A stretch of 64,000 nt of DNA from the NCBI RefSeq assembly GCF_000266945.1, contig NC_018025.1:5460001-5524000 (forward strand), given 5' to 3'. The position numbers were made by a program, and so were the translations under genes. Origin of the DNA: Desulfomonile tiedjei DSM 6799 (GTDB lineage: Bacteria > Desulfobacterota > Desulfomonilia > Desulfomonilales > Desulfomonilaceae). The notes under the pieces are model-generated. The model ran no database searches. It had not been told where the DNA came from and saw nothing but the letters and a program-made list of their open reading frames with translations. Within the stretch, counting starts at the first letter, position 1. The number at the start of each line of letters is the position of its first letter. This document shows positions 803-60,731 of this stretch, piece by piece.

Positions 803-1030
803 ACCTGTCATCCTGATTTCAAGTTGAGGAAGAGAATCGGAGAGGGATTTTTTTGTGATTCCGCGTTCTAGCGTGAACTCTCCGAATCCTCGCTTGTATG
901 TCAAGTCTGCTCATCGTACAGATTCGCAATCAAAGAGGTAAAACGGGGGAAAACACTTCTTTCAAGGAGGGTTTCCCTAGCTATTATACTGGCTTGCAGC
1001 AAGATATTTCTCATTGAGGCGTTGGACTGA

Positions 1031-1203
1031 TTGCCAAAAAATTCTGACGTTTATCTCACACGGTTCAATTCAACATATCGGTGGGGACCAGCGTCCCTGC
1101 CGGTCCATTCTATTGATTTAATTTATTATATTGAAGATGTGCCGGCACGGAGGCACGGCACCCACCAATATTTCTATTTTCAATCGGACACTAATTTTGG
1201 CAA
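1031..1203 (+). repeat. Family A MITE-like element, copy A1
   Basis: A 173-bp element bounded by inverted ends: TTGCCAAAAAATT on the left, AATTTTGGCAA on the right. Inside are two hairpins, one around GCGTCCCTGCCGG and one of the form GTGCCGG...GGCAC. It matches copies at 49609, 52726 and 59205, plus reversed copies near 9954 and 11428. It has no coding capacity, so it must be moved by enzymes encoded elsewhere, if it moves at all. It contains an unoccupied copy of the IS110 target core (1092-1103). Confidence 0.8.
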
Positions 1204-1204
1204 T

Positions 1205-1325
1205 TGCGGTACCACGGACCTACAGGGTAAGTCCGTGGTACCCAAGATTGACATTTGGGCCCGGATACAGGGGTGCCACTGACCTGCGGAGTCAGGTCAG
1301 TGCGGTTAGCATCTTGAATGCAAAA
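1205..1325 (+). repeat. Family C hairpin repeat, copy C1
   Basis: A run of short hairpins directly after element A1: an ACGGAC...GTCCGT stem, then the conserved GGATACAGGGGTGCCACTGA and a TGACC...GGTCA stem. Related copies lie at 11292-11424, 50152-50223 (reversed) and 51738-51849. A and C are adjacent here and again near 11424, so they may form a composite unit. Confidence 0.65.
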
Positions 1326-2738: not shown

Positions 2739-3788
2739 TCTTTCCTCTTCTGATACTCTCAAATCCTCAAATCACCGAGAATGAAAGTCTTCGTCTGAGG
2801 CGCATATTCAATCATATAAGGATTAGCTTTTGGCTAATGCTCGCGCACTATGAAAAAACTTTGTCTCTGAATTTGAAAGGCACATTTACAGAACTTATTC
2901 AGACACGAAATTGGATGGACGGATCGAAACGTCGATCCGTTCAAGTCCTGCAATATATGAGATCCTAAATGTAGCACGGCTCAGCATTCAAAGAGATAAG
3001 ATCTGGAAAAACCGTCTTGCAACCCCGCGTCTGGGAGGCCAGAGCCTCCAGGAACCTTTCTTACAAATGGATTGTGCCCTTAAGCTCGGCTAGTATCTCA
3101 GCTTTGCATTTGACGCCAATCGGCTCAAGGCTCGGAAGTCCCGAAAGGGACGAACCATGAGTAGCCACGGGTGCAAGAAACTGTCTCAAAAGTCGAAATT
3201 TGTCCCAGATCGTGGCACGAAGTTCTCATCATTTTCACGGCCTGATTGTAGGGGCGCCCCTTGTGGGTGCCCGGTAGTGACCGGCCTCCGTGCCGGTCAT
3301 TGCGGGAGGGCAGGCACGAAACCTGCCCCTACAAGGATGATGAATCGTGGCACGATGTGTTGTGCATTCAAGATTTTTGAGACAGTTTCGCAAACCCGTG
3401 GGCAGCAGCGCCATATCATAAAGGATTGGACCCTGAAAGGGGCCCACCATTGGTCCCATCTGGGTTCAAATTGAATGATGGTAGACCCCACCAGGGTCTT
3501 CACCGTTTGGTTTTGCTATCTTTCTTTTCCATGGGTTGCACCCATGGCTACCATTTGGATCGTCCCGCTGGGGCTCCCGGTCGGCACGTCTCAGCAACAC
3601 GATAGTTGAGCTAAAGGAACAATCCTTTTACAAAAAAGGTTCCCGGATATTACTGCCTTGAATGGGAGTTGGCATGAAGCAGTATGGCAGGATACTATTG
3701 TGACCGCTTGCCTGACGTTCCATTCCAGAGTATTTTTTGCGAACGATCGGCGACCGCGAAAGATTGCATCGTCTCTTGGGAGGGCAAA
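2739..3788. other. 1-kb gene-free repeat region
   Basis: No supported gene. Bases 2739-3140 look unstructured, and a 60-residue frame at 2911 has no coding features. GTAGCCACGGGTGCAA (3161-3176) and TTGCACCCATGGCTAC (3537-3552), together with their GGGACGA flanks, form a diverged inverted pair 360 bp apart. Family B sits inside this pair, which suggests an older repeat split by a newer one. Bases 3590-3788 hold the presumed leader of the next gene. Confidence 0.5.
3178..3388. repeat. Family B MITE-like element
   Basis: A 211-bp element with perfect 14-bp inverted ends: AAACTGTCTCAAAA at 3178-3191 and its complement at 3375-3388. Inside are two further hairpins: TGTAGGGGC at 3249 against GCCCCTACA at 3324, and GACCGGC...GCCGGTC around 3279-3298. 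No open frame is credible. A fragment of its right end recurs at 10187-10230. The transposase that recognises these ends is not in the window. Confidence 0.8.
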
Positions 3789-9953: not shown

Positions 9954-10273
9954 GATTGCCAGGATTAATGTCCGATTGAAGATAGGACTATTGGTGGATG
10001 CCGGCCTCCGTGCCGGCACTTCTTCAATATAATTAATGATATCGATAGAATGTGCGGCAGCTCACGTAGGATGTGGTGAGCGAAGCGAACCGCATCGGTC
10101 GCGAAAGACCTCGACTGATGCGATTCCCGTCGGTCATCGCATCCTACATTGGCTACGCTGTCTGCCCAACAAAGATAGGAGAATTGTGGCACGATTTGTT
10201 CTGCATTCGAGAATTTTGAGACAGTCTCAGGACGCTCGAGATGCCGGTCCCCACTAATATCTTGTATTGGAGC
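9954..10273 (-). repeat. Nested repeats: reversed A2 split by other repeats
   Basis: This 320-bp gap holds family A in reverse orientation (9954-10050 and about 10240-10273), interrupted by about 185 bp. The insert contains an element with inverted ends GTAGGATG (10066-10073) and CATCCTAC (10140-10147) around a GTGAGCGAAGCGAACCGCATC-type unit. It also holds the right end of a family B element (10187-10230, ending TTTTGAGACAG). It looks like successive insertions into one place. No gene is present. Confidence 0.7.
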
Positions 10274-11291: not shown

Positions 11292-11424
11292 AGTTGCGAT
11301 CAAGATAGATCTCATTTGTGACTACAGCACGGACCTGCAGGGCAGGTCCATGGCGCTCACAACCGTCATCGATCCTGGATGCAGGGGTGCCACAGACCTC
11401 CGCAGTCAGGTCAGTGCATTGAAT
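11292..11424 (+). repeat. Family C hairpin repeat, copy C2
   Basis: It contains TTGCGATCAAGATAG, then the GACCTGCAGGGCAGGTC hairpin, GGATGCAGGGGTGCCACAGA and a TGACC...GGTCA arm, in the same order as the other family C copies. It directly abuts a reversed family A remnant. No gene lies between 11211 and 11607. Confidence 0.65.
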
Positions 11425-11427
11425 ATT

Positions 11428-11511
11428 GGTAGGTGCCGTGCCTCCGTGCCGGCACATTTTTCAAATACAAATCAACCGGTAGGGGGTCGGCAGAGACGCC
11501 GACCCCCACCA
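11428..11511 (-). repeat. Diverged family A hairpins, copy A3
   Basis: Reversed and shortened family A. It keeps the GTGCCGTGCCTCCGTGCCGGCAC hairpin (cited in part) and a second 10-bp stem, GGGGGTCGGC/GCCGACCCCC at 11482-11507. The second stem carries paired changes relative to GGACCGGC/GCCGGTCC in the main family, and its loop, read in the family orientation, is GTCTCT rather than GTCCCT. A hairpin of this same variant lies at 59128-59150. Confidence 0.65.
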
Positions 11512-19613: not shown

Positions 19614-19698
19614 TGGTGCGAGAGGGGGGACTCGAACCCCCATGGGTTGCCCCGCCGGATCCTAAGTCCGGTGCGTCTGCCAATTCCGCCACTCTCGC
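19614..19698 (-). tRNA. tRNA-Leu (anticodon UAG)
   Basis: An 85-nt class II tRNA with CCA encoded (19614-19616). The acceptor stem GCGAGAG pairs with CTCTCGC. The anticodon stem CCGGA/TCCGG encloses loop CTTAGGA, giving anticodon UAG for CUA codons. The D-loop is present, a long variable arm follows, and the T-arm is GGGGGTTCGAGTCCCCC. These are standard leucine features. Confidence 0.97.
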
Positions 19699-19765: not shown

Positions 19766-19857
19766 ATACCAACTTGCTTTCAAAGTTGGACGAAAATCCC
19801 CTCTGACCCCCCTTTATAAAGGGGGGTCAGAGGGGATTTTGAATGCAACTTGGGCTA
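19766..19857. terminator. Family P palindrome P2, likely terminator
   Basis: Bases 19793-19840 form a perfect 48-bp palindrome (arms AAAATCCCCTCTGACCCC..., centre TTTATAAA). Outside it are the family's unequal ends, ACTTGCTTTCAAAG on one side and GAATGCAACTTGG on the other. It lies within 10 bp of the nuoN stop codon. Both strands end the stem in TTTT, so it can act as a terminator in both directions, here for the nuo operon. Confidence 0.75.
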
Positions 19858-27135: not shown

Positions 27136-27230
27136 GATACCAATTTGCATTCAAAATCCCCCACATTCCCCCCTTTATTAAAGGGGGGGTAGAGGGGATT
27201 TTTCGTCTAACTTTGAAAGCAAATCGGACT
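27136..27230. repeat. Family P element, copy P3
   Basis: Ends ACCAATTTGCATTCAAAATC and TTTGCTTTCAAAGT read inward surround the palindrome CCCCCCTTTATTAAAGGGGGG. It sits inside the nuo operon between nuoG and nuoH. It supplies the last codons and stop of nuoG and part of the nuoH leader. If it terminates transcription, it would lower expression of nuoH-N relative to nuoA-G. Confidence 0.75.
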
Positions 27231-48485: not shown

Positions 48486-48617
48486 GATGCCGATTTGCAT
48501 TCAAAATCCCCCCATTCCCCCCTTTACGAAAGGGAGGTAAGAGGCAACATCTTGATTCCCCCCTTATTAAAGGGGGGTCAGGGGGGATTTTCGTTTGATT
48601 TGAAAGCAGATTGATAT
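48486..48617. repeat. Family P element, copy P4
   Basis: Ends GATTTGCATTCAAAATCCCC and TTTGATTTGAAAGCAGATTG flank two half-palindromes (CCCCCCTTTACGAAAGGGAGG and CCCCCCTTATTAAAGGGGGG, each cited in part). It looks like an element whose centre was duplicated. It is a likely terminator for the corrinoid gene. Confidence 0.7.
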
Positions 48618-49411: not shown

Positions 49412-49608
49412 ACATGTTCTTTCTCGGAACCGCTCTTCGTAATCAGCGATTACTTTGGGGAGTCAGTAAACAAACCTGGTGGCCCAAAGCGAGACCTCCC
49501 GTTCCGGCTCATGGATGAGCTCGGCGTCGCTTTAGGGCCATCCTTTTTTATTTATATATAGCAGATTGACACAATTTCTGTCCTTGAACACTCTACTATT
49601 TATCGCGA

Positions 49609-49775
49609 TTGCCGAAAATTTTGACGTTTATCCCATGCTCCAACACAAGATACTGGTGGGGACCGGCGTCCCTGCCGGTCCATTCTATCGATATCATTGA
49701 TCATATTGAAGATGTGCCGGCACGGAGGCACGGCACCCACCGATTTTCGAGAACCGCTTTTCGCAATCGGACAAC
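49609..49775 (+). repeat. Family A element, copy A4 (right end decayed)
   Basis: Left end TTGCCGAAAATTTTGACG and both internal hairpins are kept (GACCGGC-GTCCCT-GCCGGTC and GTGCCGG...CGGCAC). The right inverted end is no longer recognisable. An unoccupied IS110 target core lies at 49667-49678. Confidence 0.75.
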
Positions 49776-52656: not shown

Positions 52657-52725
52657 CAAGGCATCAGCCTGGCGACAAGTACGAAAGAGAGACCGCAAGA
52701 AAAAGACCTGCTAAGAAATTATAGT

Positions 52726-52903
52726 CAGTGCCAAAAATTCTGTCGTTTATCCCTCGTGTGAATTACAGGATATTGGTAGGGGCCGGCGTCCCTGCCGGTC
52801 CATTCTAGCGATATCATTGATCATATTGAAGATGTGCCGGCACGGAGGCACGGCACCCACCAATATTCCTAAATCTTCAATCGGACACTAATTTTGGCAA
52901 CTG
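52726..52903 (+). repeat. Family A element, copy A5 (intact)
   Basis: The best-kept copy, 178 bp. The left end is CAGTGCCAAAAATT and the right end AATTTTGGCAACTG, imperfect inverted repeats. TTATAGT precedes the left end, as it does in copy A6. Hairpins GGCCGGC-GTCCCT-GCCGGTC (a G-T pair in the stem) and GTGCCGGCAC...GGCAC are intact. The unoccupied IS110 target core is at 52787-52798. The gap 52657-53146 has no gene. Confidence 0.85.
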
Positions 52904-53146
52904 TTATGCGTTTTTGCTGCTTAATAAAAGCTGAGGTTATGGCCAAAAGCCACTGTCTCCGGAGACACGGATTTTCCCGAGGCAAAATCGTTCTATGACA
53001 GACTGCAAATTCGGCGGTTGCCCTGGAATAGTTTGGCAGGGCATTTCCAGGATGCTTCCCAGGGCAACCGCGTCATCAGCGTGCCTTGAACTGCCGCACA
53101 GCGGATCGGCAAATTGGAGATATCGTGCGGCTGTTGCCGATCAGAG

Positions 53147-59204: not shown

Positions 59205-59374
59205 TTATAGTCAGTGCCAAAAATTCTGTCGTTTATCCCTCGTGTGAATTACAGGATATTGGTAGGGACCGGCGTCCCTTGTATGTTTCTGTCCATGAAG
59301 TACTGAATCTCTGGAACCGGTACCGAGCTGAGGGGAGGGGCTGATACTGGATCAATGATACGAGGTACTTCAAA

Positions 59375-59597
59375 AAATAGGACTCTTGGTTGCCAAGATA
59401 TAAGAGTCCTGATAGAGGGGGGATGCACGTCTGTCAGACTCTCTGCAGGAGTCGGGCAGAGGCACCGGTAGATCGTTCGTCCCTTGGTCCTCTGAGACTG
59501 CCCGGCAGCTGGATCACCGGAGGCCTTCGTGTAAAAAGCCCGAACAGTCGCCTGGACTCGTTGAGAAGTCCGTATCCACAAGGGTGGGATGTTACAC
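59375..59597 (+). ncRNA. IS110 bridge RNA (predicted)
   Basis: Structure in order. A 5' stem is AGGACTCTT/AAGAGTCCT (59379-59387 and 59402-59410). Next is stem CTCTGC/GCAGAG (59441-59446 and 59456-59461). The target loop is closed by CCGGTAGATC/GATCACCGG (59465-59474 and 59512-59520) and holds CGTCCCT (59478-59484) and CCGGCAG (59502-59508) around a small GGTC/GACT stem. The donor loop is closed by GTGTAA/TTACAC (59529-59534 and 59592-59597) and holds ACAGTCG (59544-59550) and ACAAG (59578-59582) around GGACT/AGTCC. The target-loop guides equal the left target and the complement of the right target of this very insertion. The donor-loop guides do the same for the element's ends. Exact RNA ends are not determined. 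Confidence 0.85.
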
Positions 59598-60539
59598 ATG
59601 CATGAAGAAGTTTTTGTTGGCATAGATATCTCTAAAGATCAGTTGGATGCGCATGTGCTGCCAAAAGGCATGCACACCACCGTCAAGAATGACACTCAAG
59701 GCATCGACTCGCTGATTGAGATCCTCCACGCAGAGACCCCCATGGTAATCGTGATGGAAGCCACCGGAGGCTACGAGATAACCGTTGCGGCCCAGTTAGG
59801 TCTCGCCGGCCTGCCGATCGCTGTCGTCAACCCTGGTCAGGTGCGGGACTTTGCTAAAGGCATCGGAAAACTCGCCAAGACAGACGCCATCGATGCTTAT
59901 GTGCTGGCACGCTTTGCCCAAACGGTTAGGCCCATACCGAAGCCGCTGCCAACGGAGGACGAAAAGCAAATCAAGGAACTCGTAACACGTCGAAAGCAGC
60001 TTGTTGATTTGCGTGCATCAGAAAAGAATCGCCTCCATCGAGCCCGTTCCAATCGCGTGCAGCGCAGCATTCAAACGGTCATAGCAGCCCTAGATAAGGA
60101 AATCGAAGACATCGATAAAGATGTCGATGACCTTATCAGGAAATCGCCTCTGTGGCGTGAAACAGAGGAACTCCTCCGAACCTTCAAAGGCGTGGGCCCC
60201 ATAACTGCCAGAGTGCTCATGGCAAAACTGCCCGAACTGGGACATGTCAGCCGTCATGAAATCAGTCGCCTCGTCGGCCTGGCGCCTCTCAACAAAGACA
60301 GCGGAAAGAAGAAAGGCAAGCGCGAGATTTCGGGTGGACGGGCGGATGTACGCTCAACCCTGTATATGGCTGCAGTCGCGGCCATAACGTCCAATGTAGT
60401 CATCAAGCCTTTCTATCAACGCCTCATTGAGGCTGGAAAACCTTTCAAGGTTGCCATCACGGCTTGTATGCGTAAGATGATCGTCATCCTAAACGCAATG
60501 CTCAAGAAAAAACAGCCTTTCCAGGTAGTTTTTCCTTGA
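59589..60539 (+). CDS. IS110-family transposase (bridge recombinase)
   Basis: A 316-residue recombinase. The N-terminal RuvC-like domain has the DEDD set Asp13 (VGIDISK), Glu57 (VMEATGG), Asp99 and Asp102 (AKTDAIDAYV). A coiled-coil part (about 130-185) leads to the C-terminal Tnp domain with LVGLAPLNKDSGKKKG, where Ser238 is the likely nucleophile, and GGRADVRSTLYMAAV. All catalytic residues are present and the frame is intact, so the element may still be active. The ATG at 59598 is an alternative start that would avoid overlap with the bridge RNA's closing stem. Confidence 0.94.
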   Translation: MLHMHEEVFVGIDISKDQLDAHVLPKGMHTTVKNDTQGIDSLIEILHAETPMVIVMEATGGYEITVAAQLGLAGLPIAVVNPGQVRDFAKGIGKLAKTDAIDAYVLARFAQTVRPIPKPLPTEDEKQIKELVTRRKQLVDLRASEKNRLHRARSNRVQRSIQTVIAALDKEIEDIDKDVDDLIRKSPLWRETEELLRTFKGVGPITARVLMAKLPELGHVSRHEISRLVGLAPLNKDSGKKKGKREISGGRADVRSTLYMAAVAAITSNVVIKPFYQRLIEAGKPFKVAITACMRKMIVILNAMLKKKQPFQVVFP

Positions 60540-60731
60540 CAAGAAACACAGTCGCTGCCGGTCCATTCTATCGATATCATTGACCATATTTAAGATGTGC
60601 CGGCACGGAGGCACGGCACCTACCAATCTTCTTAATCTTCAATCGGTCACTAATTTTGGCAACTGATATAATCCTTGTCATTGCGAGGAGTGCAGCGACG
60701 TGACACGAAACCGGGAAACTGATAAGTGGTC

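What the first reader, a model, noticed from the sequence alone, without database searches (positions are those of the whole stretch)
52726..52903. Family A: a structured 178-bp inverted-end element with paired stem changes
At least six copies in 64 kb share ends (CAGTTGCCAAAATT type) and two hairpins. Between copies the first stem changes in pairs: GGACCGGC/GCCGGTCC, GGGCCGGC/GCCGGTCC (G-T pair), GGGTCGGC/GCCGACCC. The structure is kept while the sequence drifts, which suggests that the hairpin itself matters, as DNA or RNA.
Basis: seen in the sequence. Interest (0 to 1): 0.6.

Follow-up and report, generated by a model that had tools for sequence, protein, structure and literature searches.

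The report
Transposon ends carrying a hairpin pair
The repeat is a small piece of mobile DNA with transposon ends around a pair of hairpins of a known bacterial repeat class (REP); it has spread to many dozens of places in this genome, and relatives use similar ends to carry other hairpins.

Summary
Real, but the covariation reading mostly fails. The element (best limits 52722-52906) is one of 71 uninterrupted copies among the genome stretches I fetched, plus copies split by later insertions. Two things are nested. Outside is a miniature IS630-type transposon: it inserts at TA (empty paralogous sites) and its ends match an IS630 element in a Deltaproteobacteria MAG. Two searches found no IS630 transposase in this genome. 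Inside is a pair of inverted GTAG/GTGG-footed hairpins, a REP dimer. The genome has 750 matches to the REP core (reversed-pattern control 26), and one gene over the RAYT model's cut-off lies among eight of them. Within the family, stem 1 shows 20 one-sided, 3 two-sided and 21 broken cells of 559. An IS110 element sits in the first hairpin's loop at the same base in six copies, one in this window (59278-60556), with guide-like matches to that loop. In a sibling genome similar ends enclose a CGTC-tagged REP dimer in 9 of 12 loci examined.

The parts
52722..52906 (+). Family A element: IS630-type miniature element with a REP dimer inside
   Evidence: Alignment of 71 copies; ends set by TA duplication in paralogous filled and empty sites
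52720..52721 (.). left target TA
   Evidence: Filled/empty comparison; read directly
52907..52908 (.). right target copy, TG in this copy, read as a decayed TA
   Evidence: Many other copies have TATA here
52722..52740 (+). left terminal inverted repeat
   Evidence: 75 matches genome-wide with up to 3 mismatches, reversed-pattern control 0
52888..52906 (-). right terminal inverted repeat
   Evidence: 68 matches genome-wide with up to 3 mismatches, reversed-pattern control 0
52772..52863 (+). REP dimer (REPIN-like cargo) ATTGGTAG...CCACCAAT
   Evidence: Hairpins with the same loops and GTAG/GTGG feet lie around the RAYT gene; short core matches in other genera
52776..52779 (+). GTAG foot of REP 1
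   Evidence: Sequence; GTAG tag as described in PMC3733652 (abstract, sections 7 and 16)
52780..52801 (+). REP 1 hairpin GGGCCGGC-GTCCCT-GCCGGTCC
52834..52856 (-). REP 2 hairpin (inverted), GTGCCG...CGGCAC
52857..52860 (-). GTGG foot of REP 2
   Evidence: Sequence
1029..1209 (+). older full copy, 86.5% identical to the query copy
49605..49775 (+). copy with decayed ends
59205..59279 (+). left part of a copy split by an IS110 element
60555..60670 (+). right part of the same split copy
59278..60556 (+). IS110 element inserted in the REP 1 loop, dinucleotide CT at both borders
   Evidence: NCBIfam NF033542, 240.5 bits; PF01548 and PF02371; limits
59565..60536 (+). open frame of the IS110 transposase
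59478..59508 (+). candidate bridge-RNA target loop: CGTCCCT (as target top strand) and CCGGCAG (complement of CTGCCGG)
   Evidence: pairing rule from PMC11208160 (passages). Inferred, no RNA data
9956..10060 (-). right-hand fragment of the family
11421..11511 (-). related REP dimer without Family A ends (one source of the GGGTCGGC/GCCGACCC stem)

Best explanation
Family A is a non-autonomous IS630-type (TA-inserting) miniature transposon that once took in a REP dimer and was then copied many dozens of times as a unit by an IS630 transposase that this genome seems to have lost. The hairpins are REPs, hairpins of the kind handled as single-strand DNA by REP-associated tyrosine transposases (RAYTs), and such a gene is still present. 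Shown here: the copies, the TA target, ends shared with IS630 elements elsewhere, REP loops shared with the surroundings of the RAYT gene, and no IS630 found in the genome by two searches. Inferred: that an IS630 transposase moved the unit, that the RAYT made or moved the REP pair before capture, and that the loss of IS630 left the copies to decay. Secondarily, the REP 1 loop is a landing site for an IS110 element that probably finds it with a bridge RNA.
For: 71 uninterrupted copies, 70 distinct rows, same architecture. TA duplication: filled L007 and L009 (CAAGATGCTA-element-TAACTGCACTGACC) against empty paralogues in the window (minus strand, about 1280-1320), L046 and L019. An IS630 of 1118 bp with left end TATAGCAGTTGCCAAAAG in a Deltaproteobacteria MAG (L111); its two transposase pieces score 46.2 bits (below the cut-off of 100) and 147 bits with NF033545. 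The same start in sibling G001 at contig ends, and a related IS630 in G004 (131.5 bits). REP core: 750 matches against 26 for the reversed pattern, up to 2 mismatches. RAYT: NF047646 80.4 bits against a cut-off of 80, only PDB match 4er8 TnpArep at E 0.0007, with eight REP cores within the 3.2-kb locus, on both sides of the gene. Of the other six loci with PF01797 matches, four have none, one has one that lies in a Family A copy, and one has one. IS110: six copies at one site. Against the window copy's IS it differs by 0 bases in L046, L048 and L062 and by 3 in L047; L049 is 2 bp shorter and was not counted. In the five copies compared, both flank halves of L046, L048, L049 and L050 match some uninterrupted copy better than any other split copy; L047 ties.
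Against: No IS630 in the genome itself: 0 hits for PF13358 and 0 for the L111 C-terminal piece, so movement by it cannot be seen here. The L111 gene has a stop codon inside, its right end differs from the left at several bases, and the sibling copies break at contig ends, so no intact IS630 gene with these ends was read. The RAYT score is barely above its cut-off; a second RAYT-like gene (L097, 68.3 bits, below cut-off) has a single REP core about 250 bp upstream, so which gene, if either, served these REPs is open. The two ends of Family A are not identical to each other. Only two filled sites had an identifiable empty paralogue. The REP dimer could belong functionally to the miniature element rather than be captured.
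Confidence: 0.84

Rival explanations
1. The whole 185-bp unit is a large REPIN moved by the RAYT; the outer arms are part of the REPIN and not transposon ends.
For: A RAYT gene among REPs with the same loops is present; an IS630 was not found. The REP dimer sits in the middle and the whole folds as one hairpin.
Against: TA duplication at insertion and ends shared with IS630 elements elsewhere. The same kind of ends enclose other hairpins in sibling genomes. The REPs next to the RAYT gene lack these arms; a full Family A copy lies further off in that locus.
Confidence: 0.08
2. A structured RNA: the hairpin is transcribed and acts as a regulator, terminator or mRNA stabiliser, so selection keeps the fold.
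For: Very stable fold, z = -6.28. The abstract of PMC3733652 says many REPs are plausibly transcribed. REP 2 diverges least of all parts (1.6% against 4.6% in REP 1, 7.0% in the spacer and 11-14% in the arms). Stem 1 pairs marginally more than shuffles.
Against: No Rfam match at the element at gathering scores. No compensatory excess in stem 2, a marginal one in stem 1. At least 18 copies have REP 1 split by an insertion in or near its loop. Transcription was not testable.
Confidence: 0.05
3. REPs in this lineage arose from the insides of such miniature elements rather than being captured by them.
For: In this genome two other miniature families (ends GAAAnTGTCTCAAAA and TATACCGATTCTCGAAAG) also contain REP-like hairpins.
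Against: In G002 (7 matches) and G008 (10 matches), other genera of the family, the listed matches are all short and confined to the REP part of the query; I did not inspect their flanks for other ends. The RAYT gene lies among REPs.
Confidence: 0.05

Closest known systems
REPIN / GTAG-tagged REP dimers with RAYT (PMC3116915 passages; PMC3733652 abstract, sections 7 and 16)
   Same: Two inverted hairpins with GTAG/GTGG feet, hundreds of REPs in the genome, RAYT gene among such REPs, paired changes between variants (a passage of PMC3116915 calls compensatory changes common)
   Different: Here the dimer lies inside transposon ends and was multiplied with them; copies are about 185 bp with outer arms of about 40-50 bp
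GTAG-15 dimers of Anabaena variabilis inside TATAGGA...TCCTATA palindromes (PMC3733652, section 7)
   Same: REP dimers regularly enclosed by inverted arms that begin TATAG and end CTATA
   Different: The section does not name the arms as transposon ends; other arm sequence, other phylum; no change of cargo described there
IS630-family miniature elements (MITEs)
   Same: TA target, inverted ends shared with an IS630, no coding capacity (family traits recalled; TA and ends tested here)
   Different: Interior is a REP dimer; transposase not found in the same genome
IS110 elements that insert in REPs (PMC11208160, passages; PMC8450116, start of abstract in a listing)
   Same: IS110 with CT at its borders, inserted into a REP at one fixed base, guide-like matches in the left end
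   Different: Target is a REP loop inside a miniature transposon; no RNA shown

Membership tests
IS630-type miniature element (MITE) | duplicates TA on insertion | tested here: met
   2 filled sites (L007, L009) against 3 empty paralogues
IS630-type miniature element (MITE) | ends shared with an IS630 element | tested here: met
   First 17 bases (TATAGCAGTTGCCAAAA) of right ends such as those at G000:C1:4890742 and 3792114 equal the left end of L111 and of the G001 contig-end copies; transposase by NF033545
IS630-type miniature element (MITE) | transposase in the same cell (needed for current movement, not for descent) | tested here: not met
   0 hits in the genome; filed as a stranded member only
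GTAG REP dimer / REPIN | hairpin with GTAG-type foot, two in inverted order | tested here: met
   GTAG at 52776-52779 and GTGG at 52857-52860
GTAG REP dimer / REPIN | RAYT gene in the genome flanked by the same REPs | tested here: met
   L098, NF047646 80.4 bits at cut-off 80, REP cores on both sides
GTAG REP dimer / REPIN | moved by the RAYT | not testable with these tools
   needs an assay or population sequencing
structured RNA family (Rfam) | match to a covariance model | tested here: not met
   one match in the window, a tRNA elsewhere
structure under selection within Family A | excess of compensatory over single changes | tested here: inconclusive
   stem 1: 3 two-sided, 20 one-sided, 21 broken; stem 2: 0, 2, 10; shuffles reaching the paired count: 3 of 2000 and 2000 of 2000
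IS110 with bridge RNA aimed at REPs | left end holds guides for both sides of the target, core included | tested here: inconclusive
   CGTCCCT and CCGGCAG, 7 nt each, in order; a single 7-mer match is weak, no shuffle control was run

The most novel reading that the evidence does not exclude
IS630-type ends act as interchangeable carriers of hairpin pairs: within one genus much the same ends enclose a GTAG REP dimer (this genome), a CGTC REP dimer (sibling G001) and a long hairpin (isolate M47). REPs of both super-families, including CGTC REPs for which no transposase is known, could thus spread by a DDE transposase without a RAYT.
Probability: 0.45. Interest if true: 0.62.

Novelty: new variant of a known kind. 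Interest (0 to 1): 0.45.

Why it matters
[quoted passage not shown] In a sibling genome 9 of 12 examined loci hold a CGTC dimer between IS630-type ends, and in this genome a GTAG dimer is copied in the same way. If that holds, part of the REP load of such genomes is spread as passenger of ordinary transposons. REP counts would then not measure RAYT activity, and REP stem covariation would have to be tested between families, not between copies. It also warns that a stable, many-copy hairpin need not be under structural selection.

Tried and rejected
Rfam for the window: one match, a tRNA. PF13358 in the own genome: none. Structured-RNA reading: hardly supported by pair counts. Stem GGGTCGGC as a Family A variant: rejected. 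The pattern scan of genome contigs gave 51 loci, eight of them outside Desulfomonile: L111 holds the IS630. I took the other seven (Bacteroidetes MAG, Mesonia, Muricauda, a Spirochaetales MAG, Cellulophaga, an Ignavibacteria MAG, Microcoleus) for chance or unrelated elements from the printed sequence only. Plasmid search to name the organism: no match, own records may be left out. Paper searches without a direct hit.

Limits of counts. One search scored 40 of 485 first-look candidates. The 71 copies come from stretches chosen around matches and ends with up to 3 mismatches, so the true number is a lower bound. Of 74 full hits, 3 reverse self-matches were dropped; 71 rows gave 70 distinct. One search listed 100 of 750 matches; I used the 68 distinct ones, all with zero mismatches and uneven in position. 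In one search the fourth position beside the core pairs in only 7 of 68, and there the slid partners pair more often (50 and 48), so the stem ends after three free positions. For G001, 12 of 38 end matches were examined. M47 has 22 end matches in 21 loci; 15 show an opposite end about 120-145 bases on with at most 2 mismatches, 6 run off the stretch held, and in 1 it was not found. NCBIfam was run on five of the seven PF01797 matches (L093, L095, L096, L097, L098). L094 shows the same open frame as L093 and L099 has a stop.

Full report
What is there. The element at 52726-52903 is real and folds far better than shuffles (z = -6.28). A genome search listed 40 long matches, the window copy among them and the others 89-97% identical, and 5 short ones. 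I fetched stretches around matches to the two ends (75 left, 68 right, control 0) and aligned 71 uninterrupted copies, 69.7-100% identical to the query copy. Other copies are split: 6 by an IS110 element, 12 by a second miniature element in or near the loop of REP 1 and 4 by a third one, one of these also holding the IS110. The full limits are 52722-52906, with TA at 52720-52721 and TG at 52907-52908.

Outer layer. Two copies sit in another repeat whose empty form is known elsewhere in the genome: CAAGATGCTA-[element]-TAACTGCACTGACC in L007 and L009, against CAAGATGCTAGCTGCACTGACC in L046 and close forms in the window and L019. TA is duplicated, as in IS630/Tc1-mariner elements (recalled). The ends match an IS630 element of 1118 bp in a Deltaproteobacteria MAG, L111. 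Its transposase is broken by a stop; the two pieces score 46.2 and 147 bits with NF033545, cut-off 100 for the whole protein. The sibling genome G001 has several copies of an element with the same end, cut off at contig ends. G004 has a related IS630 with a somewhat different end (131.5 bits). The own genome has no IS630 by two searches, so Family A looks stranded.

Inner layer. Between the arms lie two inverted hairpins with feet GTAG and GTGG. Their core (CCGGC, loop GTCCCT or CTCCGT, GCCGG) occurs 750 times in the genome (371 and 379 on the two strands, up to 2 mismatches) against 26 for the reversed pattern. A gene over the RAYT model's cut-off (80.4 bits, cut-off 80; PF01797; PDB 4er8 at E 0.0007) lies at about G000:C1:934,300-934,740, with REPs on both sides. 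Eight REP cores lie in that 3.2-kb locus. Of the six other loci with PF01797 matches, L093, L095, L096 and L099 have none, L094 has one inside a Family A copy, and L097 has one. L093, L095 and L096 score as IS200 transposases. L097 is a second RAYT-like gene at 68.3 bits, below cut-off. In the family, 6 genomes besides the own one match the element (7 of 60, own included). In G002 and G008 all listed matches are short and within the REP part; G004, G006 and G011 also have longer ones. So the interior is a REP dimer, REPIN-like.

Covariation. Within Family A (70 distinct rows) stem 1 has 559 cells: 20 one-sided, 3 two-sided, 21 broken. Stem 2 has 420: 2, 0, 10. The outer helix has 699: 51, 3, 108. 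Shuffles: stem 1 pairs 538 against 533.7, 3 of 2000 reach it; stem 2 pairs 410 against 410.06, 2000 of 2000 reach it. The three two-sided cells are in three single rows. Across REPs of the genome (68 distinct rows of the 100 listed), the three free positions next to the core pair in 65, 65 and 47 of 68. With the partner slid by one the numbers are 4, 26 and 27, or 13, 32 and 6; a fourth position does not pair (7 of 68). Over 30 distinct stems 77 of 120 cells pair against a mean of 50.4, 0 of 5000 shuffles. Paired changes are therefore a property of REPs over long times, not clearly of Family A copies.

IS110 in the hairpin. In six copies an IS110 element lies in the loop of REP 1 at the same base and in the same orientation, with CT at both borders. 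Against the window copy the 1275-bp element differs by 0 bases in L046, L048 and L062 and by 3 in L047; L049 is 2 bp shorter. In the five copies compared, both flanking halves of L046, L048, L049 and L050 match some uninterrupted copy better than another split copy, and L047 ties, so the insertions were most likely repeated. The left end holds CGTCCCT and CCGGCAG, the two halves of the target in the arrangement described for bridge RNAs (PMC11208160, passages). This is an inference. IS110 insertion into REPs is known.

Exchange of cargo. In G001, 9 of 12 examined loci hold a 134-142 bp element with much the same outer end and a CGTC-tagged dimer inside; of the other three, L071 has the hairpins but no convincing far end, and L060 and L072 gave no pair. 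In isolate M47, 15 of 22 end matches have the opposite end close by with a long hairpin between. In G004 one locus (L091) has a GTAG-type hairpin between such ends. A precedent is the GTAG-15 dimers of Anabaena variabilis inside TATAGGA...TCCTATA arms (PMC3733652, section 7). That paper leaves open how CGTC REPs move.

Organism. Contig lengths 6,500,104 and 26,923 fit Desulfomonile tiedjei as I recall it. The plasmid search gave nothing.

Papers seen: PMC3733652 (abstract, sections 7 and 16, passages), PMC3116915 (passages), PMC11208160 (passages), PMC10969869 (passages, both in its reference list); PMC8450116 and PMC2817692 (start of abstract in a listing). Searches on REP dimers inside miniature elements or in this genus.

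Changes on checking: the IS110 comparison, the M47 count (15, not 14), the RAYT statement (a second, weaker gene) and the IS4 name were mended. Confidence was lowered from 0.85 to 0.84 for the second RAYT-like gene.

Noticed in passing
window 3165-3401; also inside Family A copies, e.g. L044, L045, L081: A second miniature family with ends like GAAAnTGTCTCAAAA...TTTTGAGACAnTTTC, several copies with REP-like hairpins inside. It lies in or near the REP 1 loop of 12 Family A copies. Whether this was repeated targeting or joint copying is open.
   Followed up: partly
L257 from base 93; L043, L047, L054, L189: A third family with ends TATACCGATTCTCGAAAG...CTTTCGATAACAGCTATA, 67 left-end matches; the intact copy in L257 carries a REP dimer. 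Three of four insertions into Family A sit at different TA sites whose empty form is known from other copies.
   Followed up: partly
L254, L255, L256: A roughly 1.5-kb IS4-family element (NF033592, 168.1 bits on the L254 frame), ends CAATGCTGTTGA, inserted in the type-2 REP of the third family, in both orientations.
   Followed up: partly
L098 1438-1887 (minus); L097 1456-2133 (plus): RAYT gene in a dense cluster of REPs with a third-family element and a Family A copy nearby; and a second RAYT-like gene below the model's cut-off with one REP core upstream.
   Followed up: partly
window 52834-52856 and the same columns in 70 distinct rows: REP 2 diverges much less (1.6%) than REP 1 (4.6%), the spacer (7.0%) and the arms (11-14%), without covariation. 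Selection, gene conversion from other REPs or a composite history could explain it.
   Followed up: no
window 19793-19840, 48503-48591, 27153-27203: Palindromes of the type AAAATCCCC...CCCCCCTTTA and its complement, the first a perfect 24-bp inverted repeat with no spacer, about 100 bp from a tRNA at 19617-19698.
   Followed up: no
Desulfomonile sp. M47, 21 of the 51 loci (between L101 and L150): The same ends enclose a long hairpin GGTGGGTGTCGGGAGGTCCCG..., with its inner part flipped in some copies (L126, L128, L131).
   Followed up: partly
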